Shown: positions 45,933-60,202 of the stretch, piece by piece | Layout of the letters: every line of letters starts with the position of its first letter | Position numbering within the stretch: position 1 is the first letter of the stretch | NCBI RefSeq assembly: GCF_001904655.1 | Contig: NZ_MRCC01000013.1 | Span: 1 to 64,000 of the forward strand | DNA: 64,000 bases | Source of the DNA: Chroogloeocystis siderophila 5.2 s.c.1 | Lineage (GTDB): Bacteria; Cyanobacteriota; Cyanobacteriia; Cyanobacteriales; Chroococcidiopsidaceae | Direction of reading: 5' to 3' | Program-made: the position numbers and the translations under genes | The notes under the pieces: model-generated | What the model was told of the DNA's origin: nothing | The model's input: the letters and a program-made list of their open reading frames with translations, nothing else | The model's database searches: none

Positions 45933-46403
45933 ATGGTAGAAACTGGCAGAATCAGAGTAGCAAAAGACAAAGCTGACTTAGTTAAATTTTTAATATCCAC
46001 TGATGGTAGAACAGGTCCTTTTCAGACTTATGTTGATATAATTGTCTTTGCTGCTGCTTTGGGTGCAAAGCACAACAAACGAGTACCTTTAGGAGAGATT
46101 TCCAAAAGAGAACCGTCTCCTATTCCACAAGAACAGTTTATTGTTCGCGGATATGACACAGTCATTAATCTTATAGCAATTACTGAAACCAAAAATTTAA
46201 GCGTTTTATCTTTTAGTGAAAATCAAAGTCGTGAAAAACGTAATTATATTTTTGAAGAATATGCCAATGGAGGACTAGAAATATTACAATCAGAGTTTCG
46301 AGGTGCGGTTGACTATTCAGAACGAATTTTACTGATTCTCAGTTCAGAACGAGTCGAACATAAGAAAGATAGTGAATTTGATCTGAGTAGATTTTTATCT
46401 TGA
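45933..46403 (+). CDS. Dnd system-associated protein 4-like
   Basis: A 156-aa protein starting RIRVAKDKADLVKFLISTDGRTGPFQTYVDIIVFAAALGAKH, with VPLGEISKREPSPIPQEQF and YEERL-like ends (FEEYANGGLEILQSEF). This agrees with what I recall of the family found only beside dnd genes and called DNA phosphorothioation-associated protein 4. No catalytic motif is evident. It follows the ATPase by 43 bases on the same strand and converges on dndB. Function is unknown. Confidence 0.7.
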   Translation: MVETGRIRVAKDKADLVKFLISTDGRTGPFQTYVDIIVFAAALGAKHNKRVPLGEISKREPSPIPQEQFIVRGYDTVINLIAITETKNLSVLSFSENQSREKRNYIFEEYANGGLEILQSEFRGAVDYSERILLILSSERVEHKKDSEFDLSRFLS

Positions 46404-46414
46404 ATTAAATATTA

Positions 46415-47599
46415 TTAATTATTAATAAACTTTATCCATCCCAGCTTGACTTTTACAGTGTTAACTGCGGCGGCGATCGCACTTCCACCAAAAGATACTT
46501 TATAAGGTTTTGCTGGATTTTTGGGTTTAAGATCTATCCTAACTATATTATCTCGCCAAAGTTCATTTTCTCTTGACCAATCTAGCTGTGCTAGTTGCGA
46601 AATTTTTGTTTGATTAAAATAATTATCTTCTTGAGCGTAAGTATGATAAAGCAATCTTCCTAAAACTTCTAAACCAGCACTTACACCAAGTAGACATTCT
46701 TCCTTAAATCTACTTATATCATCAACAGTTAAATTCTGATGAGCTTTTTCAACAATATACCGCGTGTGGTGACACTCCAAGAAAAATTGATTAAGACACT
46801 CAGCTAGAGATCCGCTTACTGCTTCTACCTCGTAATTTTTCAATTCATCGGCTGGATCGTTAGCAAAAACACAACTGACAAATCTAGCAACGTAATTTGT
46901 GGTGTAAATTAGCTTACTTTTAGTTGCAGGATTTGATTTAATTTTCTCTGTCTTGTCTTGAAACATTGAAACTCTGTTAATTAATTCTTTGGTAATACCA
47001 ACTCGACCAGAGTATTCACCAAATGACAATAACAAAGATTTATTTAGCGGTCTCGTTTGTGCCATATCTTTGAAGTCGATTTGACACTGATGCTTATCCG
47101 CCTCTAAAATTAAAGTAATCGGAAAATCATCATCACCAATCAAGTGGCTTTCATTACCTAAAACTAGTTCTTGAATTGCACTTTTACGATGTTGTCCATC
47201 GGTAATATCTAATTTAACTTTATTAGGAATAACGACGATACAAAGTCCTCTACCTAATTCATGGACTATAATATTGTGTTCATCAACATTGGTGGTAATT
47301 GTTCCTAAAACCCAAGGTCGATTTGCTTTAGTGCGTTCGACAACATATGTTTTGATTTCCTCCGCATGACCTTTAACTTCTGGGCGATTTTTACCCGAAT
47401 CAGGATCGTTGTCAGTAGATGGCATCGCTTGGAGAAGAATAGGCAAATCTCTGGCTGGAACATTGATTTGCACCATTTTTCGCTTTCCTTGCTGAAAAAT
47501 TAACCCAGGATAGCACCGTTCGCGATGATACTTTGAAAAATAAGGCTCAAGTAGCAAATCAAGTCGCTGATGATTGATATCTTCTGGCGCTTCTACCAT
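46415..47599 (-). CDS. dndB: DndB-like DGQHR-domain protein
   Basis: 394 aa with the defining DGQHR motif in KLDITDGQHRKSAIQEL near residue 135. DndB proteins bind DNA, repress dnd transcription and limit phosphorothioation; they are not needed for the sulfur chemistry. A second DGQHR protein lies upstream (48661-50229), separated by an IS element, and both point the same way. The longer one may be the regulator and this one a paralogue, or the reverse. The sequence does not decide this. Confidence 0.8.
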   Translation of the reverse strand: MVEAPEDINHQRLDLLLEPYFSKYHRERCYPGLIFQQGKRKMVQINVPARDLPILLQAMPSTDNDPDSGKNRPEVKGHAEEIKTYVVERTKANRPWVLGTITTNVDEHNIIVHELGRGLCIVVIPNKVKLDITDGQHRKSAIQELVLGNESHLIGDDDFPITLILEADKHQCQIDFKDMAQTRPLNKSLLLSFGEYSGRVGITKELINRVSMFQDKTEKIKSNPATKSKLIYTTNYVARFVSCVFANDPADELKNYEVEAVSGSLAECLNQFFLECHHTRYIVEKAHQNLTVDDISRFKEECLLGVSAGLEVLGRLLYHTYAQEDNYFNQTKISQLAQLDWSRENELWRDNIVRIDLKPKNPAKPYKVSFGGSAIAAAVNTVKVKLGWIKFINN

Positions 47600-47703
47600 A
47601 GAAAAGTTTATCTAAGTTAGTAAAGATTAGCCTACATGATAAGTAGTATTTATACATTATGACATCAGTAAAAGCCACAAGAGAAAACGCTTTGCGAATG
47701 CTA

Positions 47704-48657
47704 CAGCAAGCCGCAGATAGATTAAGACGTTTGAGCGAAGGCTTGATCCACAACCTGTCGAAAGGGCAGACCGGACTGAATCTGTTTTCGCATTCGATTT
47801 TTCAAAACAAACCATTGATGCTCAATCGGATTCAAATCGGGCGAGTAAGGGGAGAGGTAGAGCAGGTGGCAACCGGCTTGCTGAATGAGCGTCTCGATGC
47901 GGCCGCCTTTGTGGAATGAAGCATTGTCGCAGATGAGGACACTGCCAGGGGACAAAACCGGCAACAAGGACTGCTCCAACCAGGCTTCAAACACGGCTCG
48001 ATTACAGTATCCCTCATAGGTCATGGGGGAGATTAGGGTGTGCTCATGCCAAGCTGCGATGAAACTGACCCGCTCAGTGCGCGTCCCTCGACGCTCAGCT
48101 TGGAAGCGTTCCCCCCGAGGGCACCAACCGTATCCATAATCTTCGGTATCATCAATACCGGCCTCCTCAAGATAGACCCGTTGAGATTTGTCGAACGCGG
48201 CCAGTTGAGTCAGGAACGCTTGGCGTTTGGCTGCATCCCGTTCCTGGTAGGCATAGGTCTTTTTTTTCGCGTGAATCCGATGCGTTTAAGGGCTCGACCA
48301 ATGGTGTCTTCGCTGATTTCATCCGGCCAAAGCTGGGCCATCTCGGCCTGAGTTTTTTCCCCATTCGCTTCAGCAAACTTGCGGAAGGCTTGCCAGTCGG
48401 TAATTTTATGACTATGACCGCGTTGATAGCCTTGTTTGGCTGCAATCTCACCACTTTCCCGATAGCGTTTCTTCCACTCGCTCAAAGAACTTCGGCTAAT
48501 GCCAAACATAGTCTTGACCGCGGCAATTGAATGCCCCGATGCGATTGCCGCTAAAGCTTTCTCTCGCAAGTCAGCACTGTAAGGAGAGGCCATCAGATAA
48601 TCCTCAAGGAACACTCAGTGCTCATTCTATCTGATTTGACCTCACTGCGGATTGCTA
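47704..48657 (-). mobile_element. IS630-family insertion sequence
   Basis: A 954-bp element carries an IS630-type transposase in two frames. The ends are inverted repeats: inward from the left CAGCAAGCCGCAG, inward from the right TAGCAATCCGCAG, with TA just outside on both sides (47702-47703 and 48658-48659). This is the TA target duplication of the family. It lies directly after the stop of the 522-aa DGQHR gene and upstream of dndB, in the same orientation. Confidence 0.85.
47722..48593 (-). CDS. IS630-family transposase, made by -1 frameshift
   Basis: The first frame (from ATG 48593) encodes an N-terminal helix-turn-helix domain (MASPYSADLREKALAAIASGH, then MFGISRSSLSEWKKRY). At a run of eight A residues followed by G (minus strand of 48260-48267, containing A-AAA-AAG), a -1 shift joins it to the DDE domain: RVYLEEAGID, VLICDNASFHKGG, SPYSPDLNPIEHQW. 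The first acidic position reads EE where DE is more usual for the family, so activity is uncertain. The C-terminus ends at 47722 close to the left repeat. Confidence 0.83.
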
Positions 48658-48660
48658 TAA

Positions 48661-50229
48661 TTATAAAATTGGTGGTAATCCCACTGCTTTTGGTTCTACA
48701 AACTGACCATCAAAACTGATCGCCTGTGTTTCGACAGTCCTTGCATCTGCTATAGCTTTGCGGAGTTGGGCGCGTTCCATCGGTTCTTGGATGCCGCCGA
48801 GAATGTAAACGATTAACTTTGCTGCTAAATCACGACCTGCAACTTGTATACGCTTTTTATTTGGGTCGTACAAAACACCGTACCAAAGCGATCGCGGATA
48901 TTCCATTCCACTAAAACCGCCTTCTAAGTCAAACTTGTGGAGTTTCTTAAAGATGTCTTTGAGTGAGAAACCTTTTTTGAAGACTAAAATTCCCAAAGCT
49001 TGCGCTAAAGCAACTTGTCCAACAGGGCGAAACAGCATATTTCCTTCACCGCCATCCTTCTCGAAACTAAAGCGTCGTAGTAACGGTGTTTCTTCCGCTT
49101 CGAGTACCCGATAACTTGGTAGAGTCGCTAAATAATCAAATAACTTTTGAAACTCTATCATTCCCGCCTCAAGTTCTTTATCGTGTGGGCGTATCGGAAT
49201 TAACTTTTTATCTAGCGGTTTCCAATGTAAAAACTTTTGTCCAAGATATCTCTCTGACATCTCTTTTAGTGCTTGTAGCGTTGTCAAAACTGTAGACTTA
49301 GTAGCAACTGTGGCGCTATTCCAATTAACACGTGGTTTTCGCGTGCTTCTTTGTTCTAACAATGGATGCTTCGTCGCAATTTTCCTGGCAACAATCGAAA
49401 ACCCATCATCTTCGTTTAACTGCGCTAATTGACCTTTTGTTAAAGGGACAGCCATTAAGTTGACATGAACAAAAATCGATCTTACTCGTCGTCTTGCTTG
49501 TTCGCGAGTTTCGCCTTTCTCGACTGCACAGATAAACTCAATTCCTATTTTTTCTTGAGGTAAACTTTCCAAATAATCAACATCTACTTGATAATGCTCA
49601 ATTAAATCATTTAAAGTAATGACACTACCATCAGGAGTTTTGTCTTTGCGATAACGCTGAAGTTGATGCGTCTCAATTAACTCCATCAATCCTTGTACTC
49701 CCATCAAGCGGTGTTGACCGTCAAGTGCATAGATAGTGTTTTCTGGTGCAAAATTCAGTAAACCTACGCTTCCATCACGGTCTAAAGGTCTAAAATCAAT
49801 AGTAGATTTTAAGGCACGTCCTTCACGATCCCATTGTGCTGCTTCAGGATTATCTACCCAAGATTGATTGATGACAACAAGTACTGGCGGAAACTTGTGG
49901 TTTTTCCATGCGGCTAAATATTGTACGAGTGGTATCTGACGCGACCAATCAAGCGGACGCTGGTGAATTTCTGAGATAGTATCCGCATCGACTTCCACAT
50001 TGCCTGTTGTAGGATTATGTTTAGGCTGAAGTAGCGGTAAACACGATGCAAAGTACACTTGCTGCGCAAACCACTCCAAGGTAACTGACCCTAAGTAAGC
50101 TTGAGTACGACCCATCATTGTTGTTTGCACGAAGATTTGATCTAAATGCTGCGCTAATAACGAAGCCAATTCTGCTGGTGTGTTCTCTGGGCGATATTTA
50201 CCAGTAGTATCAGCTACTTTCTTACTCAT
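48661..50229 (-). CDS. DGQHR-domain protein of the Dnd island (DndB-related)
   Basis: 522 aa with the motif YALDGQHRLMGVQGLMEL near residue 173, after APENTI, and a C-terminal region with AKLIVYILGGI. This longer DGQHR type occurs beside dnd genes and is divergent here from dndC with a 161-base intergenic region. A regulatory role like DndB is likely. The IS630 element begins 3 bases after its stop, so the gene itself is not interrupted. Confidence 0.8.
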   Translation of the reverse strand: MSKKVADTTGKYRPENTPAELASLLAQHLDQIFVQTTMMGRTQAYLGSVTLEWFAQQVYFASCLPLLQPKHNPTTGNVEVDADTISEIHQRPLDWSRQIPLVQYLAAWKNHKFPPVLVVINQSWVDNPEAAQWDREGRALKSTIDFRPLDRDGSVGLLNFAPENTIYALDGQHRLMGVQGLMELIETHQLQRYRKDKTPDGSVITLNDLIEHYQVDVDYLESLPQEKIGIEFICAVEKGETREQARRRVRSIFVHVNLMAVPLTKGQLAQLNEDDGFSIVARKIATKHPLLEQRSTRKPRVNWNSATVATKSTVLTTLQALKEMSERYLGQKFLHWKPLDKKLIPIRPHDKELEAGMIEFQKLFDYLATLPSYRVLEAEETPLLRRFSFEKDGGEGNMLFRPVGQVALAQALGILVFKKGFSLKDIFKKLHKFDLEGGFSGMEYPRSLWYGVLYDPNKKRIQVAGRDLAAKLIVYILGGIQEPMERAQLRKAIADARTVETQAISFDGQFVEPKAVGLPPIL

Positions 50230-50288
50230 AATTTCTGAAACTAGAAGTTCTCATAAAGCTTAAGCTACCCAGAAATTGATCGTTGAAA

Positions 50289-50344
50289 GTTTTTAAAAAC
50301 CTTTAAACTTGACAATACAGCAGTTACCTTAAAAATATTTAAGG
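50289..50344. promoter_or_regulatory. Candidate promoter/operator region between divergent dnd genes
   Basis: Three symmetric elements occur in 60 bases: GTTTTTAAAAAC (perfect, 50289-50300) lying inside AAGTTT...AAACTT (50287-50310), and CCTTAAA-AATA-TTTAAGG (50327-50344). A TTGACA box at 50309-50314 points toward dndC, and the AT-rich second dyad lies where the -10 would be. DndB proteins are known to repress dnd operons by binding inverted repeats, so these are candidate operators. Binding is inferred. Confidence 0.5.
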
Positions 50345-50390
50345 TTTATGTAACCACGCAGTCGCATGAGTTCAGTAGAGAAGGATAAAA

Positions 50391-52043
50391 ATGTCTACAC
50401 CACAACAGAAACCAAAAGAAGCGGAAACTTCGCGTCTACAGCCCTTTGGGCATCCTGCGGCGGGCGGCGTCCGTCACGATGCGAAAGTTTTCAAGACAGG
50501 CGATCAAGCACGGACTGTGGCAGACTTGGTGGCAGATATTCAAGCTCTCACCGCTGAAATTCAAGAATTATACTGTTTAGACGAGATACCTTGGTGTATA
50601 GGCTATAGTGGTGGAAAAGACAGCACGGCGACTTTACAACTCGTGTGGAATGCGATCGCCTCTCTCCCGCCTGAAAAGCGAACTAAAACAATTCACGTTA
50701 TCACGACAGATACGTTAGTAGAAAATCCAATTGTTGCAGCTTGGGTTAGTCGTTCACTTCAACACATGAAACAAGCAGCACAACAACAAGGAATGCCGGT
50801 TGAACCACATTTACTTTATCCCGCAATTAAAGAGACATTTTGGGTCAATTTAATTGGTAAAGGTTATCCTGCGCCGCGTAACCGATTTAGATGGTGTACT
50901 GAACGGTTAAAGATTCAACCCTCGGATAACTTTATTCGGGCAATGATTCGCGCAAGTGGAGAAGTCGTACTTGTACTGGGTACGCGCAAAAGCGAAAGTG
51001 TAAAACGCGCAACCAATATGGCAAAACATCGTGAGTGGCGAATACGCGATCGCCTCAACACAAATCCCAACCGACCTAACTCACTTATTTATCTCCCAAT
51101 TGAAGATTGGCATACCGATGAAGTTTGGATCTATCTCAACCAATGGCAAAATCCTTGGGGATATAGCAACAAAGATTTATTTACTATGTATCGCGGCGCA
51201 ACCGCAGACAATGAGTGCCCGCTTGTTGTTGATACTTCTACTCCTAGCTGTGGCGATTCGCGGTTTGGCTGCTGGGTTTGCACAATGGTGAGTAAAGATA
51301 AATCGATGGAGGCGATGATCCAAAACGATGAAGAGAAAGAATGGATGCAGCCGTTACTCGATATCCGTAATGAACTTGATGTCAAAGACGATCGCGACAA
51401 ACGAGACTTTCGCCGGATTTGGGGGCAAGTACAACTTTTTGAACGCAATGTCGATGGTGAAGTTTCTGTAGAACCGATTCCAGGTCCTTATACCAAATAC
51501 TGGCGCGAGTATTGGCTAAAGAAAGTGCTACAAGCACAAACACAAATTCGCCACACTGCGCCAGAAAGTATGCGTGATATTACTTTAATTACACCAGAAG
51601 AACTCAGTGAAATTCGTCGGATTTGGTTAGAAGACAAGCACGAATTTGACGATAGCTTACCGCGAATTTATCAAGAGGTGACGGGTGAACCTTTTCGCGA
51701 TCCACGCCCAGGAAGCGATCGCACTTTACTTGGTAGCGATGAATGGGCTGTATTAGAAGAAATCTGTGATGATGACGCAATGCATCTCGAACTAATGGCA
51801 AAGCTTCTCGATACCGAACGCCAGTATCGCACAATGGCGCGTCGTAATGGCATTTTTGAAGCATTAGAAAAGTGCTTTGAAACAAGTTCGCGTTCTAAAG
51901 AAGAAGCGATCGCCAACGCCCACTACAAACGCGACTTGAAAAACGCTGCTGAACAAGGCAATATCGAAACCGTCAAGCAGTTAACCTGGGCTAGCTTAAA
52001 ATTCCAAGCTACAGCCGGAGATGAAAAGTTACTAAGTGATTAA
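50391..52043 (+). CDS. dndC: DNA phosphorothioation sulfurtransferase DndC, with inserted repeat peptide
   Basis: PAPS-reductase-like enzyme that activates and transfers sulfur to the DNA backbone. The PP-loop SGGKDS is at residues 73-78. Cys residues for the Fe-S cluster are in RWCTERLK and CGDSRFGCWVC. The C-terminal helical half matches DndC. Residues ~10-36 (AETSRLQPFG, then HPAAGGVRHD and AKVFKT) come from an 80-bp repeat and are foreign to the family; family sequence resumes at TVADLVADIQ. Because the insert is N-terminal, before the catalytic domain, activity may be kept. RBS AGAAGGA precedes ATG 50391. Confidence 0.93.
   Translation: MSTPQQKPKEAETSRLQPFGHPAAGGVRHDAKVFKTGDQARTVADLVADIQALTAEIQELYCLDEIPWCIGYSGGKDSTATLQLVWNAIASLPPEKRTKTIHVITTDTLVENPIVAAWVSRSLQHMKQAAQQQGMPVEPHLLYPAIKETFWVNLIGKGYPAPRNRFRWCTERLKIQPSDNFIRAMIRASGEVVLVLGTRKSESVKRATNMAKHREWRIRDRLNTNPNRPNSLIYLPIEDWHTDEVWIYLNQWQNPWGYSNKDLFTMYRGATADNECPLVVDTSTPSCGDSRFGCWVCTMVSKDKSMEAMIQNDEEKEWMQPLLDIRNELDVKDDRDKRDFRRIWGQVQLFERNVDGEVSVEPIPGPYTKYWREYWLKKVLQAQTQIRHTAPESMRDITLITPEELSEIRRIWLEDKHEFDDSLPRIYQEVTGEPFRDPRPGSDRTLLGSDEWAVLEEICDDDAMHLELMAKLLDTERQYRTMARRNGIFEALEKCFETSSRSKEEAIANAHYKRDLKNAAEQGNIETVKQLTWASLKFQATAGDEKLLSD
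50420..50499 (+). repeat. 80-bp palindromic protein-coding repeat, copy 1 (in dndC)
   Basis: An 80-base segment matching 56939-57018 at 78 positions. The ends form an imperfect inverted repeat (GGAAACTTCGCGTC against GATGCGAAAGTTTTC), and an inner hairpin GCCC-TTT-GGGC is present. Both copies are read in the same frame as AETSRLQPFG and so on. Confidence 0.9.
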
Positions 52044-52124
52044 AATCACTGCATATGATTATAATTTTGATACAGTTCAGATAAGGCTGAACTGTATACG
52101 ACAACTAAGATCGATAGCGACTAC

Positions 52125-52637
52125 TTACCAAAGAGCACGAACGCCTTCACCAGCAGGTTGGGTGCTTCCAGCAGCGCCATTATCGTCATTGTTATCCGTG
52201 TCTGTATCGGTTGGTGCTCCTACTCCAGGGGTAGTTGTATCAGGAGTTGTTGCGTCTGGTGTTGTCGTTCCTGGGACAGTAGGATCAGTCCCTAAACCAG
52301 GAGTTGTTGCATCTGGAGTGGTTGTTCCTGGTGCAGTCGGGTCGGTCGGTTGTCCTACACCTGGAGTGGTTGTTCCTGGTGCAGTCGGGTCGGTCGGTTG
52401 TCCTACACCTGGAGTGGTTGTTCCTGGTGCAGTCGGGTCGGTCGGTTGTCCTACACCTGGAGTGGTTGTTCCTGGTGCAGTCGGGTCGGTCGGTTGTCCT
52501 ACGCCTGGAGTGGTTTGTGCAACAACGCTTTGAATGAAATTAGTTTGATTTAAAGCGGGGACAGCAAGGATTGCAGCGCCAGCAAATCCTAAAAAACCTG
52601 TAAGCTTGAGCAGCATTTGGCGTTTCCGTGTTTGCAT
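52125..52637 (-). CDS. Secreted Pro/Thr-rich repeat protein
   Basis: From ATG 52637 (M8 of a longer frame) there is a basic start (MQTRKRQMLLKL), a membrane/signal helix (GFLGFAGAAILAVPAL) and a cleavage-like VVAQ. Then four exact 16-residue units of GVGQPTDPTAPGTTTP lead into degenerate DATTPG repeats and an acidic tail (TDTDTDNNDDNG). It is a low-complexity secreted protein. I know no function. It lies inside the Dnd island but is unlike any dnd gene. Confidence 0.55.
   Translation of the reverse strand: MQTRKRQMLLKLTGFLGFAGAAILAVPALNQTNFIQSVVAQTTPGVGQPTDPTAPGTTTPGVGQPTDPTAPGTTTPGVGQPTDPTAPGTTTPGVGQPTDPTAPGTTTPDATTPGLGTDPTVPGTTTPDATTPDTTTPGVGAPTDTDTDNNDDNGAAGSTQPAGEGVRALW
52315..52506 (-). 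repeat. Four-unit 48-bp minisatellite
   Basis: Four tandem, almost identical 48-base units, each encoding GVGQPTDPTAPGTTTP on the minus strand. A partial fifth begins at 52507. Unit number may vary between strains by slippage or recombination, always in frame because 48 is a multiple of three. Confidence 0.9.
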
Positions 52638-52932
52638 TGATTTCTCCTCAAAATACACACTAAGAACAAGGCGAACTATCGAATAAATGTCATTAAGTTT
52701 CGCCTGAGGTAGGTTCGTAAAAGTAGAACCAAGAATTTTTACTCAGTTTAGGGAGATGTGTTAAAAATTTTCTCTTCCTTGAGTCGTAGTTTGTGCTTTT
52801 GATACGTTTTGTTTATCAAAACTAATCCGTGTGTAATTCGATTATTTTTTGACTTGTAAAGCTCAAGTTGAATGACAAATACAAGTAGTTGTTTATACAC
52901 TCAAAGCAGCGAGGAATTATGTGATGATTGAG

Positions 52933-53484
52933 CTATTCCACAACTGTGACAAGAGTGCCTAATTTCACTTGACTGAATAACTCTTCAACATCTTCGTTGT
53001 ACATCCGAATACAACCGTGAGAAGCTGCTGTACCTACAGATTCAGAATTAGGAGTACCATGAAAACCGATTGAATTTCTGCCATCACTCCAGAACCCAAT
53101 CCAATACGACCCCAGAGGATTTTCGGGATGTCCGCCTGGAATTCTCTCATCCGTTAAGGGACTAATCCAAGTAGGATTTTTTAACATTTGACCTACGCGA
53201 AAATTACCAGTCGGAGTTTCCCAGCCAGGACGACCTACTGCAATAGGATAGCTTTTAATCGGTGTTTCTCCCTGATACAGAGTAACCTTACGGCTATTTA
53301 GCTGAATCTTTAACCTTAAAGGCGGAGTCACGCGATTGACTGGCTGATTAGTGGGGGGTTGAGGGATCGCCGCTTGGGTGACAGTCGGCTGCGATTCTGA
53401 TAAATTTTGCTGATGAGCAATCTGGTGAGTAGCGACATTGATTGCTACTACTACACCCGCCACTGCAAATAGTTGCTTGATCAT
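52933..53484 (-). CDS. L,D-transpeptidase (YkuD) protein
   Basis: Peptidoglycan cross-linking or protein-attaching enzyme. The YkuD domain runs from about residue 57 (LRLKIQLNSRKVTLYQGE). Its catalytic block is IGFHGTPNSESVGTAASHGCIRMYNEDVEEL (His, then SHGC with the nucleophile Cys). An N-terminal hydrophobic helix anchors or exports it. Length of 183 aa is normal for small cyanobacterial LDTs. It sits between dndC and dndD on the opposite strand. Confidence 0.9.
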   Translation of the reverse strand: MIKQLFAVAGVVVAINVATHQIAHQQNLSESQPTVTQAAIPQPPTNQPVNRVTPPLRLKIQLNSRKVTLYQGETPIKSYPIAVGRPGWETPTGNFRVGQMLKNPTWISPLTDERIPGGHPENPLGSYWIGFWSDGRNSIGFHGTPNSESVGTAASHGCIRMYNEDVEELFSQVKLGTLVTVVE

Positions 53485-53788
53485 CTGAAAAATTTAGTTT
53501 CTGGGTAAAAACAACTATTTTATCTAGAAAGCAGCAAGCTTAGCCATAAAACATCTGACGTAGGTTAGAAAATCAAGGCGATTATTTGTTAAAATGACTT
53601 TCTTACAAGTACTTTACTCGATCGTTAAAAACAGGTATATTGCACCAAATTTTAATAATATTAATTAGGGTTATTATTATTTTTTACAGTGTTAAAATCA
53701 TTAAATATGAGATGAATATTAAATTCTGACAATCAGTTATCAACTATTAAATTCTAGCTTTACAATTATAATATTCAAGATAAAAAAA
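53485..53788. other. Intergenic region upstream of dndD
   Basis: About 300 very AT-rich bases between the L,D-transpeptidase and dndD, divergent. It contains AATAAT/TTATTATT symmetry near 53650-53690 but no ORF or RNA I can support. It must hold the dndD promoter. Confidence 0.35.
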
Positions 53789-55768
53789 GTGATATTTATT
53801 GAACTTGTATTACAAAATTTTGGTCCTTACCTAGGACGACAAGTTATTAACTTGCGTCCCAAAGAAGATGAGCGGTTTTGCCCGATTATTTTATTTGGTG
53901 GGATGAATGGTGGCGGAAAAACTACGCTTATGGATGCAATTCGTCTTGCTTTATACGGACAGCGCGCTCAATGTTCTACACGGGGTAACTTGAGTTATCC
54001 TGACTTTTTAACACAATCAGTTAACCGTTACACTGCCATTGGCGAACAAACTGCAATTGAATTAGCTTTTGAAAGTATTTTAGATAATGTCCAAGTTGAA
54101 TTTCGGATTAAACGCAGTTGGACTAAAAACCCTCGTAATGGTAAAGATACATTAGGTATTTTAGTTGATGATTGGCCTGATAGTGCCTTGGCTCAAATTT
54201 GGGATGAACGAATTGAAGATTTACTTCCTTTAGGAATTTCAAATTTATTTTTATTCGATGGCGAACAAGTTAAAGAGTTAGCCGAACAAGATGTACCTAC
54301 TCCAATGGTTGTTGAAGCAATTCGCTCTTTGCTTGGGTTAGAATTAGCTGAACGATTGGCCACAGATATAGAAATTTTAGTGAATCGGCGACGCAAACTT
54401 ATTGCCAATAGTCAAGCACTCATAACTTTAGAAGATATTGAACAAAAACTGAATCATCAGCAAAAAGAATATCAAATTGCCAAAGACCATTTAGCAACAA
54501 TTCAAGATAAATTAACTTATGCGCAAAAGCAACAGCAAGAAGCTTCAGATAAATTTATTCTAGAAGGTGGTAAAATTGCGGCTGAACGCAGTCAACTAGA
54601 AATTCAGTTATGTTATCAGCAAAAAGCAGTCACACGCCACCGTGATGCGCTTACTGAATTAGCTAGTGGAATTTTACCCTTGAGTTTGATATCACCGCTA
54701 CTCGTTCAAGCGCATACTCAAGTACAACAAGAATACCGACAACAGCAAGCACAAGTGAGTAAAGATGTATTATCTGAGCAAGAGCAAAAATTTTTGCAAT
54801 ACGTTACTCAAATAGGATTAGACAGCGAGCAATTTGAAAAAATTAAATTATTTTTCAAGCAAGAAATTGAAACTTTAAAACAAGATATTCAATTGCAAGA
54901 ATTATGGTTATTAGCTGATGAAGAAAGTATTTTTCAACTTAATCAAATCCTTACCCGTGATTTAGCAGATTCGCAGTCTTTAGCAAAAAAACAACTTAAT
55001 AATCTCAAAATTCAAGAAGAAAATTTAGCAGCAATTGAAAGTCAACTAGCTGTCGCGCCTGCACCAGAAGTTTATGAACAATTAGGTGATGCAGTTAAAT
55101 TTGCTCAAAGTGAACTTGCTAACGTTAAAGCAGCTTACGAGTTAGCAAGAAGACGATGTGACGAATTAGCAACAGTTATTGAAAATACGAAAAAAGAGTT
55201 AGCACAATATAGCGAGGAAAATATTGATAGAAAAAATGACGAACATATTATTACCGCATCAACTAAAGTACAAGCAACACTGAAACTATTTCGAGAAAAA
55301 CTGACGTTGCGCAAACTAAATCAATTAGAGTCTGTGATTACAGAGTGTTTTTTATATTTGCTGCATAAGTCGGATTTGGTGCATCGAGTTGCAATTGATA
55401 CGGATACTTTTAGTCTTTCGCTTTATGATTTTCAAGGACAATTAGTACCAAAACATCGTCTTTCTGCAGGAGAAAAGCAATTACTCGCGATCGCGCTATT
55501 GTGGGGACTCGCGCGTGTCTCAGGGCGCAACCTCCCAATTGCGATTGATACACCATTAGGGCGACTGGATTCTTCGCACCGCAATAACTTAGTTGAACGT
55601 TACTTTCCTTTTGCAAGTCACCAAGTCATGCTGTTTTCCACAGATACTGAAATCGGTAAAAATGAAGTTGAACAACTCCGTGCCAACAATGCGATCGCCC
55701 GTGAATATCTTCTAAAATACGATTCAGCAAAACGTTGCACCACCATCGAACCTGGTTATTTCTGGTAA
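53789..55768 (+). CDS. dndD: DNA sulfur modification ATPase DndD
   Basis: SMC-like ATPase required for phosphorothioation with DndC and DndE. Walker A GGMNGGGKTT is at residues 37-46, then LYGQRAQCSTRGNLSYPDFL and FLFDGEQVKELAEQDVPTPM (a DndD hallmark). A long coiled coil follows. The C-terminal head has signature LSAGEKQLLAIALLWGLARVSGRNLPIAIDTPLGRLDSSHR. The start is GTG 53789. Length of 659 aa is normal. dndE follows within 60 bases. Confidence 0.94.
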   Translation: MIFIELVLQNFGPYLGRQVINLRPKEDERFCPIILFGGMNGGGKTTLMDAIRLALYGQRAQCSTRGNLSYPDFLTQSVNRYTAIGEQTAIELAFESILDNVQVEFRIKRSWTKNPRNGKDTLGILVDDWPDSALAQIWDERIEDLLPLGISNLFLFDGEQVKELAEQDVPTPMVVEAIRSLLGLELAERLATDIEILVNRRRKLIANSQALITLEDIEQKLNHQQKEYQIAKDHLATIQDKLTYAQKQQQEASDKFILEGGKIAAERSQLEIQLCYQQKAVTRHRDALTELASGILPLSLISPLLVQAHTQVQQEYRQQQAQVSKDVLSEQEQKFLQYVTQIGLDSEQFEKIKLFFKQEIETLKQDIQLQELWLLADEESIFQLNQILTRDLADSQSLAKKQLNNLKIQEENLAAIESQLAVAPAPEVYEQLGDAVKFAQSELANVKAAYELARRRCDELATVIENTKKELAQYSEENIDRKNDEHIITASTKVQATLKLFREKLTLRKLNQLESVITECFLYLLHKSDLVHRVAIDTDTFSLSLYDFQGQLVPKHRLSAGEKQLLAIALLWGLARVSGRNLPIAIDTPLGRLDSSHRNNLVERYFPFASHQVMLFSTDTEIGKNEVEQLRANNAIAREYLLKYDSAKRCTTIEPGYFW

Positions 55769-55826
55769 CTAGTAATTAGTTTTGAATTTTGAATTACAAA
55801 GAATTTTCTTAACTCACCCCTCTCTG

Positions 55827-56213
55827 ATGGAACCACCACTTGATCGCATTCATTTATCACAAACGGCAAAAGACCAATTAACTAAACTTAAACGTATCAC
55901 TAAAATTGACCAGTGGAATATTTTGTGTCGCTGGGGATTTTGTCGGTCGCTGGCGGAACCTGCTATTCCGTCACCAGTACCAATTCCTGCGGATAGTAAC
56001 GTAGAGATGACGTGGCGCGTGTTTGGTGGAGAACTATCAGATATCCTAGCGATCGCTTTGAAACAACGCTGTCACAATGATGGCTTGGGTACTGATAAGG
56101 AAACGTTAGCAACACAGTTTCGCCTACACTTGCATCGCGGGATTGGTTATCTAGCAGGCGATCTGAATATCAAGAAAATCGAGGATTTAATCGAATTAGC
56201 TTTGTCGAAATGA
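55827..56213 (+). CDS. dndE: DNA sulfur modification protein DndE
   Basis: Small (~128 aa) helical protein: LDRIHLSQTAKDQLTKLKRITKIDQWNILCRWGFCRSLAEPAIPSP, then WRVFGGELSDILAIALKQRC and LHRGIGYLAGD. DndE binds nicked DNA and completes the DndCDE complex. ATG 55827 gives the family start; the frame open from 55782 adds 15 non-family codons. It lies between dndD and the methyltransferase gene on one strand. Confidence 0.92.
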   Translation: MEPPLDRIHLSQTAKDQLTKLKRITKIDQWNILCRWGFCRSLAEPAIPSPVPIPADSNVEMTWRVFGGELSDILAIALKQRCHNDGLGTDKETLATQFRLHLHRGIGYLAGDLNIKKIEDLIELALSK

Positions 56214-56267
56214 AGCTTTCATTGATCAAATTTGCTTCTATAATTAAACACAAAAGTTTGATTTGTC

Positions 56268-57788
56268 ATGGAAGCTCTGGAAATTGAACGTCATAGAGCA
56301 GCGATCGCGCGTACTGATTTATCACGTCCGGTGCGATTAGCTATAGAATGGGCGATTATAAATAACGATACCACGTTCTTTGATTACGGTTGCGGCTACG
56401 GTGGTGATGTTGAGCGCTTAGCAGCACGTCATTATACCTGTGCGGGGTGGGACCCGTACTACCGCCCTGATACGCCGCGTACGCCTGCGGATATTGTTAA
56501 TTTGGGCTATGTTCTCAACGTCATTGAAGATCCCGAAGAACGCCGCGAAGCGCTGTGTCAAGCTTGGAACCTGACACAGAAAGTTTTAATTGTTGCTGCC
56601 CAAGTTTTAATTCATGACCGCAGCAATGCCAAAATTGCTTATGGTGATGGCATTGTGACTCGCCGCAATACGTTTCAGAAATATTACGAGCAAGAAGAGT
56701 TAAAATTATACATTGATGAAGTTCTGCAAGTTGATGCTGTCCCTGTCGCGTTAGGAATTTACTTTGTCTTTCGCGATGACACTGAAAAAGAAAGCTTCCG
56801 GGCTTTACGCTTTCGTTCGCAGAGTTTGACACCGCGCGTCCGCACGCCGAGTAAGCGGTTTGAAGATTATCAAGAACTCTTAACGCCACTGATTGATTTT
56901 GTTACCGAGCGCGGCAGATTACCTGTTAAAGGTGAATTAGCGGAAACTTCGCGTCTACAGCCCTTTGGGCATCCTGCGGCGGGCGGCGTCTGTCACGATG
57001 CGAAAGTTTCCAAGACAGCAGCACAAAGCGAGATATTACTCGAATTTGGGACTTTTCGCCGCGCTTATAATGTGATTTTGCAAGCGACCGATGAAGCCGA
57101 ATGGGATGCGATCGCCTACCGTCGTTCACTGGATATTTTGGTATATCTTGCCTTAACACAGTTTGGTAAACGTCCTGGATTTAACCAGCTTGCACCCGAA
57201 CTTCGTCAAGACATCAAAGCCTTTTTTGGTACGTATCAAGAAGCTTGCCAAGTTGCGGATAAAATGCTGTTCAGCTTAGGAAAACCTGGTGTTGTTGCCC
57301 AAACGTGCAAGCAAAGTAAAATTGGTAAACTCTTACCAACAGCATTATATGTCCATGTTTCGGCGTTATCCGAACTCGACCCATTACTGCGAATATATGA
57401 AGGTTGCGCTAGCCGCACGATTGGACGCATGGATAATGCAACATTAGTTAAATTTTATACTAATAAACCTAAAATATCGTATCTTTTCTATCCAGATTTT
57501 GATACAGAGGCGCATCCTGCATTACACACGAGTATGCAAATTGACTTACAAAACCTCAATGTGGTCTATCGCGAGTATGACACTGTGGCAAATCCGCCAA
57601 TTCTACATCGCAAAGAAACTTTGGTGACACCAAGTTATCCGCTGTACGAAAAATTTGCGAAATTGACACGGCGCGAAGAAAAGTTAGGGTTATTCAAGAA
57701 CACGCGCACAATTGGAACTCGTGATGGTTGGCAACAGTGGTTAGAAGAAAAGGGTGTAGAGATTAAAGGCGATCGCATTTCTAAATGA
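56268..57788 (+). CDS. DNA phosphorothioation-associated putative methyltransferase, with inserted repeat peptide
   Basis: The SAM-binding motif FFDYGCGYGGDVERLA is at residues 37-52, then AGWDPYYRP and DIVNLGYVLNVIEDPEERREAL. The rest matches the Dnd-associated methyltransferase type found next to dndCDE. Residues about 224-250 (AETSRLQPFG, HPAAGGVCHD, AKVSKT) are the product of the 80-bp repeat, placed between the N-terminal catalytic part and the C-terminal half (LEFGTFRRAYNVIL...). The target base and its link to the sulfur mark are unknown. It starts 54 bases after dndE. Confidence 0.85.
   Translation: MEALEIERHRAAIARTDLSRPVRLAIEWAIINNDTTFFDYGCGYGGDVERLAARHYTCAGWDPYYRPDTPRTPADIVNLGYVLNVIEDPEERREALCQAWNLTQKVLIVAAQVLIHDRSNAKIAYGDGIVTRRNTFQKYYEQEELKLYIDEVLQVDAVPVALGIYFVFRDDTEKESFRALRFRSQSLTPRVRTPSKRFEDYQELLTPLIDFVTERGRLPVKGELAETSRLQPFGHPAAGGVCHDAKVSKTAAQSEILLEFGTFRRAYNVILQATDEAEWDAIAYRRSLDILVYLALTQFGKRPGFNQLAPELRQDIKAFFGTYQEACQVADKMLFSLGKPGVVAQTCKQSKIGKLLPTALYVHVSALSELDPLLRIYEGCASRTIGRMDNATLVKFYTNKPKISYLFYPDFDTEAHPALHTSMQIDLQNLNVVYREYDTVANPPILHRKETLVTPSYPLYEKFAKLTRREEKLGLFKNTRTIGTRDGWQQWLEEKGVEIKGDRISK
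56939..57018 (+). repeat. 80-bp palindromic protein-coding repeat, copy 2 (in the methyltransferase gene)
   Basis: Matches 50420-50499 in 78 of 80 positions. The two differences change R to C and F to S in the peptide. It is inserted in the same frame as in dndC, with no stop and no shift of the host frame. Confidence 0.9.
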
Positions 57789-57821
57789 CGCCTATAGTTT
57801 ACTCATTAGTTAAAATGCTAA

Positions 57822-58427
57822 TCACGCCTCAAATCGTTCAACTTGTAGGGTAAACCCACGTAGCACATCTTCACCCGACAGTTGCGTAGGCAGCGATCGC
57901 GTTTCTTTAACTTGTCCTAATCGATAAATTTCTACTTGTTGATCTTGAGGATTAAATAGCCAGCCTAGACGCACACCGCTATCAAGGTATTCTTGCATCT
58001 TAGCCTGAAACATTTCCAGGGAATTGGTTGGAGAACGCAACTCTAAGACAAAATCTGGTACAATTGGCGGAAACTTTTGCCGTTGTTCTAGCGTGAGTGC
58101 TTCCCAGCGAGATAACTCGATCCAGGCTGCGTCAGGCGAGCGATCGCCACCACCAGGTAGCTTAAAAATTGTTGACGAACTAAAAACTTTTCCGAGTTGC
58201 GTTTGACGATTCTAAATTGCCAAATCAGTACCGAGTTCGAGTTCGCGGTTGCCACTGTTGCCGCCTACAGGTGGCATGGTAATTAAACTTCCACTGGCAT
58301 TGCGTTCGACTCGAAGCTTTGGATTCGAGATGCAGAGTTGATAAAACTGTTCATCAGTCAAATGAACTGATTGCAGGTTTAGAGTCAGAGGCAAAGTGAG
58401 CATACAAGTCATTTTGCCGAACTGCAA
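57822..58427 (-). pseudogene. Uma2 family gene split by an in-frame TAG
   Basis: One continuous minus-strand frame runs MLTLPLTLNLQSVHLTDEQFYQL...GNRELELGTDLAI, stop, NRQTQLGKVF...SPDAAWIELSRWEALTLEQRQKFPPIVPDFVLELRSPTN...GFTLQVERFEA. The TAG is at 58212-58214 where relatives usually have Trp (x-WNRQTQ). The nuclease core PDFVLELRSPTN lies after the stop, so the fragment before it is inert. A single base change would restore it. A sequencing error is possible. Confidence 0.87.
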
Positions 58428-58594
58428 CTATTTGCGATAAAGTCGTGTACTTGAATTTAGCATATCGCGTCTGTAATTGAGATTAAGGACTTCTTGTGCA
58501 AAGAAGCAATTTCATTCCCAATAGTGAAATTAGTTAAACTACTTGCGATAACATTTGTTCTCAATCCAAAATCTAAAATCCAAAGTTATACAAG

Positions 58595-59860
58595 GTGGAA
58601 AGCGTGGCTAATCGATCGCTACTGCAAGTCTTTCAAAGCCGCAAGATGGTGGCTTTACTACTACTGGGGGTTTCATCGGGTTTGCCGTTGCTACTCACAA
58701 GTAAAACACTGCAAGCGTGGATGACTGTCGAAGGAGTCGATTTAAAATCGATTGGGTTGTTTAGTTTGGTCGCTTTACCGTATTCTCTCAAATTTCTCTG
58801 GGCACCTATACTTGATCGCTTTGCGTTGCCATTTTTGGGGCGACGGCGCGGCTGGTTAATTGCACTGCAAATTGGGTTGATTTTAGCGATCGCCTTCATG
58901 GGATTTCAACAACCCGCGCAAGCGTTGCAACTACTCGCGATTAATGCCTTATTTGTCGCTTTTTTCAGTGCTACACAAGATATCGCTGGCGATGCTTACC
59001 GCGCAGATATTCTAGCCGAAAAAGAAATGGGCGCAGGTGCAGCTGTCTTTGTCCTAGGTTATCGCGTCGCCTTACTGATTACAGGTTCTTTGGCACTCAT
59101 CTTAGCAGATCGCATTTCTTGGACAAGTGTTTATCTGCTCATCGCATCGGTGATGATCGTCGGTGTGATTGGTACTCTCATTGCACCCGAACCCGAAGGA
59201 CACATTCAACTTCCCGCCTCGCTATCCGAAGCAGTATTGTTACCTTTCGGCGAATTTTTTCAACGCTTGGGCGCACTAACGGGATTCTTCATTTTATGTT
59301 TTATCGTCCTCTATAAACTCGGTGATGCCTTAGTCAATAATATGTCTACGCCCTTTTTACTACAAATTGGGTTTACACAAACCGATATTGGCGCGATTCA
59401 AGGAGGAATGGGATTAATAGCCACAATCGTTGGGGCGCTGGTAGGGGGGGCAATTTTAAGTAAAATTGGGATTAATCGCTCGTTGTGGCTCTTTGGTGGC
59501 TTGCAAGCTATTAGTAACCTCGCGTATTTTATGCAAGCGCAACTAGGAAGAAACTACCCCTTCATGGTACTAACCATTAATATTGAAAACTTTTGTGCAG
59601 GCTTGGGAACTGCTGCATTTGTTGCTTTTTTAATGAGTTTGTGCAATCAAAGATTTTCGGCAACGCAGTATGCATTACTCTCTAGTTTGATGGCTGTTAG
59701 TCGTGATATTCTGGTCGCCCCCGCTGGTGCCTTGGCAGAAGCCACCGGATGGTCTTTGTTTTTTATTATTAGTATCGTCGCTGCAATTCCAGGATTGTTA
59801 TTACTTCCAGTGTTTGCACCGTGGAACCCGAAACCTGTAACTGTCCCCAAACCAAGATGA
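58595..59860 (+). CDS. ampG: AmpG-like MFS muropeptide permease
   Basis: Twelve membrane helices with the AmpG hallmarks LLLLGVSSGLPLLLTSKTLQAWMTVEGVDLKSIGLFSLVALPYSLKFLWAPILDRFALPFLGRRRGW and FFSATQDIAGDAYR. AmpG imports GlcNAc-anhydroMurNAc peptides for wall recycling. Start is GTG 58595, or GTG 58604 (giving MANRSLL). It stands alone, downstream of and divergent from the Uma2 pseudogene. Confidence 0.9.
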   Translation: MESVANRSLLQVFQSRKMVALLLLGVSSGLPLLLTSKTLQAWMTVEGVDLKSIGLFSLVALPYSLKFLWAPILDRFALPFLGRRRGWLIALQIGLILAIAFMGFQQPAQALQLLAINALFVAFFSATQDIAGDAYRADILAEKEMGAGAAVFVLGYRVALLITGSLALILADRISWTSVYLLIASVMIVGVIGTLIAPEPEGHIQLPASLSEAVLLPFGEFFQRLGALTGFFILCFIVLYKLGDALVNNMSTPFLLQIGFTQTDIGAIQGGMGLIATIVGALVGGAILSKIGINRSLWLFGGLQAISNLAYFMQAQLGRNYPFMVLTINIENFCAGLGTAAFVAFLMSLCNQRFSATQYALLSSLMAVSRDILVAPAGALAEATGWSLFFIISIVAAIPGLLLLPVFAPWNPKPVTVPKPR

Positions 59861-59983
59861 GAAGAATAACGAAATAATTCAGTTGTAGGATGGAAGAAGA
59901 AAAGTGTCATGACTAGCTGCAACGAAAATTAGCGCTGCGCGGAGTTATTAATAATGAATAAAGTTAACTCAAAAGTTTGAAAT

Positions 59984-60202
59984 ATGAAAATCTTACGCGA
60001 ATATATAGCTCCAGTCCTTGCAGTTATAGGATTTTTAATTGCCTTGATTGCAGTTAGCGCCCGTATCTTTTTACCCAGCGATATGGCTGCGCCTGCACCG
60101 ATTGAAGAACCTACGGCGATACCTAAACAAGCACAGTTATTCAAGGTGAATAGCGCGATCGCCGAAAATCCCTTGCAACATATCTCAAGTTCTCGTGTCT
60201 GA
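59984..60202 (+). CDS. Small single-pass membrane protein
   Basis: 72 aa with one membrane helix (IAPVLAVIGFLIALIAVSARIFL), then a Pro/Ala-rich hydrophilic tail. Its 3' end overlaps the GTG start of the GNAT gene by 8 bases, suggesting coupling. I do not recognise a family. Confidence 0.55.
   Translation: MKILREYIAPVLAVIGFLIALIAVSARIFLPSDMAAPAPIEEPTAIPKQAQLFKVNSAIAENPLQHISSSRV

What the first reader, a model, noticed from the sequence alone, without database searches (positions are those of the whole stretch)
50420..57018. Same 80-bp palindromic repeat inserted in frame in two genes of one Dnd island
Copies at 50420-50499 (dndC) and 56939-57018 (Dnd methyltransferase) agree in 78 of 80 bases, end in imperfect inverted repeats and are read in the same frame, giving AETSRLQPFG plus about 16 more shared residues. 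Neither host gene is shifted or stopped. This resembles the protein-coding palindromic elements of Rickettsia (RPE), where a mobile repeat survives inside proteins. Having two copies in functionally linked genes is striking. It may be a transposing element that tolerates translation, or recent copying within the island.
Basis: partly seen in the sequence, partly recalled or inferred. Interest (0 to 1): 0.8.

Follow-up and report, generated by a model that had tools for sequence, protein, structure and literature searches.

The report
Mobile hairpin repeat inside cyanobacterial proteins
A tiny hairpin-shaped repeat that appears to be mobile has been inserted, without breaking the reading frame, into two DNA-modification genes of this cyanobacterium, and relatives of the same repeat sit inside many unrelated proteins of other cyanobacteria, much like the "protein-coding palindromes" known from Rickettsia.

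Summary
The two 80-bp copies (78/80 identical, same frame) belong to a dispersed family of imperfect hairpins, 5'-GCGRAAA...TTTYCAAGA-3', mostly 49-52 nt, up to 79 nt. No other near-identical copy exists in the genome, but diverged ones do. I curated 88 copies from a search of 19 family genomes. The stem varies while pairing is kept (7 of 12 pairs change on both sides among 46 aligned copies). At 13 sites, relatives' empty sites give net insertions of 45, 48, 51 or 78 nt, most with about 1 nt of ambiguity. Host ORFs include diaminopimelate epimerase, CobN, a macro domain, a pseudouridine synthase, an NRPS condensation domain, a GTPase, photolyase, inteins and TnpB. The methyltransferase insertion is older (two genera, one with a 24-nt-shorter in-frame form); the dndC insertion is younger. 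Both host genes stay under purifying selection (dN/dS 0.05 and 0.08). In-frame copies also lie in dndC (same position) and dndD of some Nostocaceae. Anabaena sp. 4-3 carries nine identical copies in heptamer-like arrays. It works like a Rickettsia RPE but is shorter and occurs in all six frames; relatedness was not tested. The mobilising enzyme is unknown.

The parts
50421..50499 (+). 79-nt hairpin element, copy 1, in frame in the N-terminal segment of dndC (residues 11-36 AETSRLQPFGHPAAGGVRHDAKVFKT)
   Evidence: in 45 of 47 genomes with a DndC match the match starts at residue 31 or later, the other two being G000 and G002; N-termini read
50423..50436 (+). 5' stem arm of copy 1 (GGAAACTTCGCGTC)
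50478..50492 (+). 3' stem arm of copy 1 (GATGCGAAAGTTTTC, one bulged A)
56940..57018 (+). 79-nt hairpin element, copy 2, in frame inside the Dnd-associated methyltransferase (net +78 nt, 26 residues)
   Evidence: empty site in G004 = Gloeocapsopsis crepidinum
56942..56955 (+). 5' stem arm of copy 2
56997..57011 (+). 3' stem arm of copy 2
50391..52043 (+). dndC, host of copy 1; the Pfam PAPS-reductase match starts at residue 71, after the insert; dN/dS 0.05 against G002
56268..57788 (+). DNA phosphorothioation-associated putative methyltransferase, host of copy 2; dN/dS 0.08 against G002
53789..55768 (+). dndD (context; its orthologues in Desmonostoc and Nostoc sp. JL33 carry an in-frame copy of the same family)
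55782..56213 (+). dndE (context)

Best explanation
The 80-bp repeat is a member of a family of very small, probably non-autonomous mobile hairpins of cyanobacteria (Chroococcidiopsidaceae and Nostocaceae above all) with fixed ends 5'-GCGRAAA...TTTYCAAGA-3' and a compensating, variable stem. Shown: dispersed copies, empty sites with little or no target duplication, a biased insertion point (A before the 5' end in 77% of 81 flanks), stem covariation, and nine identical copies at different places in one Anabaena. Inferred: it moves as a folded hairpin, served in trans by an enzyme not identified here. When it lands in a gene it persists only where the net length is a multiple of three, no stop is made and the protein region tolerates it; it is then translated as a neutral linker-like peptide. 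In this island a copy entered the methyltransferase gene first; a descendant or close sibling was later copied into dndC in the common ancestor of G000 and G002.
For: Empty sites: 14 of 16 host sites tested have a relative spanning the site (all but L152 and L167). Read by eye, 13 of these give net insertions of 45, 48, 51 or 78 nt; dndC is the 14th, with an ambiguous junction (query made, searched). 46 aligned copies: 7 of 12 stem pairs have two-sided compensatory changes, although the search pattern fixed only the ends. Pattern hits in the family: 95 in 17 of 19 genomes against 19 for the reversed-pattern control; the richest genome has 18 against 0. Of 30 host ORFs scanned with Pfam (out of 49 listed), 28 matched a family; the element lies inside the Pfam match of CobN, Macro, PseudoU_synth_2, Condensation, MMR_HSR1 GTPase and a LAGLIDADG intein. 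Length in phase: 30 of 33 deep-in-ORF copies, 6 of 10 near ORF edges, 20 of 43 outside ORFs (deep against outside, Fisher p 6e-5); after collapsing orthologous sites that I recognised, 25 of 28 against 19 of 39, p 6e-4. AA before the insertion: 32 of 81 against 10% background, p 3e-12. Nine 51-nt copies in G122 identical in sequence at separate places. Host genes under purifying selection while the methyltransferase insert itself is not (4 non-synonymous, 1 synonymous change).
Against: No transposition was observed and no autonomous partner found. Y1-transposase loci examined (30 of 67 matches) carry no such hairpin except one IS605-like locus in G006 that is itself a host. The control suggests roughly one chance pattern hit per genome; I removed 8, so some of the 88 kept are probably false. 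Requiring an open ORF by itself favours in-phase copies, and not every deep ORF was checked for a known family (L085, L089, L129 and L153 were not scanned). 44% of copies with a shuffled middle still reach 9 of 12 stem pairs, so that filter is weak (observed mean 11.2 against 8.3). G004, in the same genus as G010, lacks the methyltransferase insertion, so its history is not a simple single gain. That host proteins are functional is inferred, not tested.
Confidence: 0.86

Rival explanations
1. It is simply one of the cyanobacterial small dispersed repeats or minitransposons already described in Nostoc (Elhai et al. 2008), so the family is known and only the protein-coding aspect is new.
For: Recalled from that abstract: very small mobile repeats, some sharing a secondary structure, often embedded in heptameric tandem repeats or minitransposons. 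PMC4390886 (passages seen) says SDR5 inserts precisely within HIP1.
Against: SDR units are recalled as 21-27 nt, here mostly 48-79 nt; the empty sites read here are not HIP1. The paper is not held, so sequences could not be compared.
Confidence: 0.3
2. The copies are REP-like hairpins moved by a RAYT or IS200/IS605-type Y1 (HUH) transposase as single-stranded DNA.
For: Hairpin with an unpaired conserved foot, no clear target duplication, biased target side. Five TnpB genes carry copies, four of them near the C terminus. PMC6006769 (passages seen) reports REP insertions inside tnpA-REP genes of a subclass abundant in cyanobacteria.
Against: No GTAG or CGTC tag. 30 of 67 Y1 loci examined lack the hairpin except one. 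G016 and G018 have copies but no Y1 match, and G000 only a degenerate one (G016 and G018 assemblies are 88% and 65% complete).
Confidence: 0.3
3. A structured RNA motif selected for function in mRNAs, spread with genes.
For: Strong stem covariation.
Against: 10 of 33 deep-in-ORF copies are antisense to the host gene, hosts are unrelated, many copies are outside ORFs; no Rfam match in 46000-60000 at gathering threshold; orthologues lack it.
Confidence: 0.04
4. Dnd genes are preferred targets, for example because phosphorothioation or nicking helps insertion.
For: dnd genes carry a copy at four sites: methyltransferase and dndC here, dndC in two Komarekiella at the same codon position, dndD in Desmonostoc and Nostoc sp. 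JL33. All 4 hits in 1.23 Mb of dnd loci are in dnd ORFs.
Against: The 80 loci were chosen for carrying a dnd gene; two independent events in a region that is largely dnd coding do not show a preference. The other hosts found are mostly unrelated to Dnd.
Confidence: 0.05
5. Ancestral family sequence, or chance resemblance, with no insertion.
For: None found.
Against: Empty sites in close relatives; the 80 methyltransferase homologues match over 474-479 codons, too short to hold the segment; 78/80 identity between unrelated genes.
Confidence: 0.01

Closest known systems
Rickettsia palindromic elements (RPE; Ogata 2000, 2002) and the Wolbachia counterpart
   Same: Imperfect palindrome, present both between genes and in frame inside unrelated conserved proteins, host gene apparently still functional (RPE facts from passages of PMC2229807 and PMC10969869).
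   Different: Mostly 48-79 nt instead of 105-146 bp; free-living cyanobacteria; both orientations and all six frames used; stem sequence changes widely while pairing is kept. No sequence relation was tested.
Cyanobacterial small dispersed repeats SDR1-8 (Elhai 2008; paper not held, recalled)
   Same: Very small structured repeats in Nostocales, heptamer-array context.
   Different: About twice as long, other target, in-frame occurrence in many proteins; sequence identity could not be tested.
REP/REPIN with RAYT (TnpA-REP), incl. GTAG-15/16 repeats of cyanobacteria (PMC3733652, passages seen)
   Same: Hairpin with a short conserved foot; REP insertions inside tnpA-REP genes are reported (PMC6006769, passages seen).
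   Different: No GTAG or CGTC foot, no linked Y1 gene found, intragenic in many host families.
MITEs and enterobacterial RU/ERIC repeats
   Same: Short, terminal inverted repeats, presumably moved in trans; intragenic RU copies are reported (PMC2759123, title and abstract start in a search listing).
   Different: Shorter, no clear target-site duplication, no parent transposon found.

Membership tests
Rickettsia palindromic element (RPE) | Imperfect palindrome folding into a long stem-loop | tested here: met
Rickettsia palindromic element (RPE) | In-frame insertion in unrelated conserved proteins whose orthologues lack it | tested here: met
Rickettsia palindromic element (RPE) | Length about 105-146 bp | tested here: not met
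   47-79 nt among copies outside and inside ORFs; RPE size from PMC2229807
Rickettsia palindromic element (RPE) | Sequence homology to an RPE family | not tested
   RPE sequences were not fetched
Rickettsia palindromic element (RPE) | Translated product stays functional | not testable with these tools
   only indirect: dN/dS 0.05 and 0.08
Cyanobacterial SDR | 21-27 nt unit (recalled) | tested here: not met
   47-79 nt
Cyanobacterial SDR | Published consensus sequence | not testable with these tools
   PMC2527708 not held
REP of the GTAG/CGTC type | GTAG or CGTC tag at the hairpin foot | tested here: not met
   feet are GC and mostly CAAGASA, i.e. TSTCTTG on the other strand
REP with RAYT / IS200-IS605 derivative | Cognate Y1 transposase gene flanked by the hairpin | tested here: inconclusive
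   30 of 67 Y1 matches in 19 genomes examined; only L204 (G006) has the pattern, and it is the copy that lies in tnpB
MITE | Target-site duplication | tested here: not met
   about 1 nt of ambiguity at most close empty sites; L104, L142 and L151 show 4, 2 and 2 nt
MITE | Parent autonomous transposon with the same ends | tested here: inconclusive
   none seen; only Y1 loci and the flanks of copies were examined

The most novel reading that the evidence does not exclude
A family of protein-coding palindromes unrelated to the Rickettsiales ones, in free-living photosynthetic bacteria, still mobile, that repeatedly seeds 15-26-residue insertions into conserved enzymes in any of the six frames; element lineages themselves may have been shaped to be frame-neutral (net length a multiple of three, few stops in most frames).
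Probability: 0.5. Interest if true: 0.8.

Novelty: new variant of a known kind. Interest (0 to 1): 0.64.

Why it matters
Palindromes that survive inside proteins are best known from Rickettsia and Wolbachia, obligate intracellular bacteria, and how they move is open. A counterpart in free-living cyanobacteria, with apparently fresh identical copies in one Anabaena and clean empty sites, would make the mobility question testable and would show that selfish DNA can add peptide segments to conserved enzymes such as DapF, CobN and PrmC.

Tried and rejected
Rfam scan of 46000-60000: no match at gathering threshold. Blastn of the 80 bases against phages and plasmids: no match. Plain BLAST and strict end patterns in 40 relatives found only a handful of copies; the covariance model R1 opened the family. 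Y1 transposase association: searched, not supported. Two copies 1.7 kb apart in G142 flank an ordinary radical-SAM-like gene, not a transposase (name by eye). In the rows shown for 80 genomes of the order (list cut off by the tool), hits outside f1, f23 and a few genomes of f10, f12 and f60 look by eye like chance, without a hairpin.

Eight of the 96 deduplicated rows were dropped as chance by eye (L113, L114, L115, L117, L122, L135, L183, L190; 88 rows kept), for example an ABC-transporter Q-loop; two more (L146, L178) fell under the stem filter. Structure models are poor (mean pLDDT 60.9 and 50.9); in both the insert is coil and among the least confident stretches, which fits a tolerated loop but proves little. 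Stop-codon depletion outside ORFs is modest (mean 3.98 open frames against 3.48 with the middle shuffled), so frame-neutrality at element level remains a suggestion. Literature: in the listings of ten searches I saw no paper on in-frame hairpin repeats dispersed in cyanobacterial proteins; the library lacks most subscription journals and Elhai 2008, and I read only passages of six papers.
Full report
OBSERVATION. The window carries a dnd operon (dndC, dndD, dndE and the TIGR04096 methyltransferase on +, two DndB-like genes on -). Two 80-base stretches, 50420-50499 in dndC and 56939-57018 in the methyltransferase gene, agree in 78 of 80 bases and are read in the same frame. BLAST of the 80 bases over the whole genome (5.0 Mb, 43 contigs) gives no third close copy. 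The + strand folds into a long stem with a bulge, -32 kcal/mol, z -2.4; the - strand does not stand out.

ANCESTRY OF THE TWO COPIES. In the same-genus genome G002 both copies are present (99% and 95% to copy 1); in G010 (another genus of the family) the methyltransferase has a copy in the same place that is 24 nt shorter, still in frame and still a hairpin, and its dndC has none. The 80 named methyltransferase loci fetched match over 474-479 codons, which leaves no room for the insert. dndC of G001, G004, G010 and G014 lacks the segment, and in 45 of 47 genomes with a DndC match the match begins at residue 31 or later. So the methyltransferase insertion is the older one and the dndC copy came later, in the G000/G002 ancestor. 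Absence in G004, a congener of G010, means a loss, a separate gain or transfer of the island; I cannot tell which. Between G000 and G002 dN/dS is 0.05 for dndC and 0.08 for the methyltransferase, whereas the methyltransferase insert has 4 non-synonymous and 1 synonymous change: the genes look functional and the insert looks neutral (inference from few changes).

A DISPERSED FAMILY. A pattern of the two ends found a third, diverged 79-nt copy in an intergenic stretch of the same genome (context). A covariance model of 7 copies (R1, 5 of 23 pairs with two-sided changes) found shorter relatives in 13 of 19 family genomes at E<=0.1, some of them weak. The looser pattern TCTTGRAAAN{25,55}TTTYCGC gave 95 hits in 17 of 19 genomes against 19 for its reversed control. 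After fetching flanks and removing duplicates, 96 rows remained; I dropped 8 by eye and kept 88. In the window's own genome at least 11 copies stand after this curation: 8 from the pattern and three of 79 nt. Lengths cluster at 49, 50, 52, 64 and 79 nt. In 46 aligned copies of 48-55 nt, 7 of 12 stem pairs show changes on both sides, for example C-G 18, G-C 17, A-U 8 at one pair, although the search fixed only the terminal bases.

IN-FRAME IN PROTEINS. Of 49 ORF rows of 180 residues or more holding a match I scanned 30 with Pfam; 28 matched a family (L096 and L165 did not). The element lies inside the Pfam match of CobN (L112), Macro (L142), a pseudouridine synthase (L146), an NRPS condensation domain (L101), a GTPase (L119) and a LAGLIDADG intein (L160), and within the span of an intein-splicing match (L168). 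In DAP epimerase (L108) it follows the CGNG motif (by eye), and it starts where the best stretch of an IS240-type transposase match ends (L132). It lies between, beside or after domains in photolyase, DUF2887, methyltransferase, histidine kinase and five TnpB ORFs, in the DnaX tail, and near the N termini of PrmC, LysR, M28 and DUF1611 proteins. Of 86 copies with at least 9 of 12 stem pairs, 33 lie deep in an ORF, 10 near its edge (both dndC rows among them) and 43 outside such ORFs. Length is in phase in 30 of 33, 6 of 10 and 20 of 43 (deep against outside, Fisher p 6e-5). With orthologous sites that I recognised collapsed it is 25 of 28 against 19 of 39, p 6e-4. Caveat: the open-ORF criterion itself favours in-phase copies. 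Frames of the 33: sense 14, 3 and 6, antisense 5, 2 and 3, so the shared frame of the two Dnd copies is not a family rule.

EMPTY SITES. Flanks of 75+75 nt from 14 hosts were joined and sought in the family; with dndC and the methyltransferase 16 sites were examined. 14 of 16 have a relative spanning the site; L152 and L167 have none. Read by eye, 13 sites give net insertions of 45, 48, 51 or 78 nt. Most show 1 nt more in the empty site than in the joined flanks; L142 and L151 show 2, L104 shows 4, L172 could be 45 or 48, L146 depends on the relative used (45 or 51), and the dndC junction is ambiguous because relatives are diverged there. Examples: CobN AAAAAA^GAAGG, methyltransferase-like TTCA^GCGCG, kinase GCTT^GTGG, photolyase GGGAA^ACAGAG. 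Of 81 distinct 5' flanks, 77% have A and none has C next to the element, and 32 end in AA (10% background, p 3e-12).

BEYOND THE FAMILY. A second model (R2, 46 copies) hit 23 of 242 class genomes at E<=0.01, most copies in family f1 and in f23. All 11 lie between ATTTT and ATTTTG, in AATTTTG-like heptamer arrays, in one orientation: the best sign of recent mobility. In 80 named dnd loci (1.23 Mb) the pattern occurs four times, each time in frame in a dnd gene. In dndC of Komarekiella atlantica and K. delphini-convector it is at the same position as in the window but with a different, 52-nt element; in dndD of Desmonostoc and Nostoc sp. JL33 it adds 17 residues after QCVNSK or QCVNNK, where the other 44 of 46 loci with the motif have none. 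Parallel insertion at a favoured target is my preferred reading for dndC; shared descent or transfer is not excluded. Because these loci were chosen for a dnd gene, this is no proof of Dnd targeting.

MECHANISM. Shown: fixed ends, covarying stem, precise insertion, biased target, in-frame survival. Inferred: movement as a folded hairpin by an enzyme acting in trans. Against the obvious candidate, the Y1 (HUH) transposases: 67 matches in 17 of 19 genomes; of 30 loci read, only L204 in G006 contains the hairpin, and that is the copy in its tnpB. Two near-identical duplicated segments in G007 (L109, L126) carry the element with the apical 14 nt inverted relative to the stem, which suggests that the stem is active in the cell as a cruciform or hairpin.

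COMPARISON. The nearest known kind is the Rickettsia palindromic element, described in passages read of PMC2229807 and PMC10969869. The behaviour is the same; length, host phylum and use of both orientations and six frames differ; sequence relation was not tested. The cyanobacterial small dispersed repeats of Elhai 2008 share the heptamer context (recalled abstract), but that paper is not held. REPs of the GTAG/CGTC type differ in the foot (PMC3733652, passages). I therefore call it a new variant of a known kind, with the reservation that part of the family may already be described under another name.

Noticed in passing
L109 and L126 (G007 C1:25404 and C1:37951): Two near-identical duplicated segments carry the same hairpin, but the apical 14 nt are inverted relative to the stem in one of them.
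   Followed up: partly
L095 (G015 C51, about 86550-86795) and L166 (G016 C10): The hairpin forms head-to-tail tandem arrays with periods of 49 and 48 nt; the array in L166 is open in one frame (16 codons per unit).
   Followed up: no
L009 (G011 C148:25034): The inner part of the 79-nt element (GGGCATCCTGCGGCGGG / CTACAGCCC) occurs split by another hairpin-like stretch of about 30 nt, a possible nested insertion.
   Followed up: no
L086, L087, L143, L194: Four TnpB genes in four genomes carry the element close to the C terminus; G005 has two copies of one such stretch. Whether this is more than chance was not tested.
   Followed up: partly
L160 and L168: Two different intein-bearing ORFs each host an in-frame copy with nearly the same sequence but in different frames.
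   Followed up: no
G007 C2 and C3, G015 several contigs (query 1501-1651): The photolyase-like host gene of L161 has several paralogues in these two genomes.
   Followed up: no
window 52262-52549: 48-bp tandem repeats in a proline- and threonine-rich ORF on the minus strand (52125-52658), between dndC and dndD.
   Followed up: no
window 47722-48614: What looks by eye like an IS630-type transposase split over two minus-strand ORFs lies between the two DndB-like genes.
   Followed up: no
window 46415-47599 and 48661-50229: Two different DndB/DGQHR-type genes on the minus strand precede dndC.
   Followed up: no
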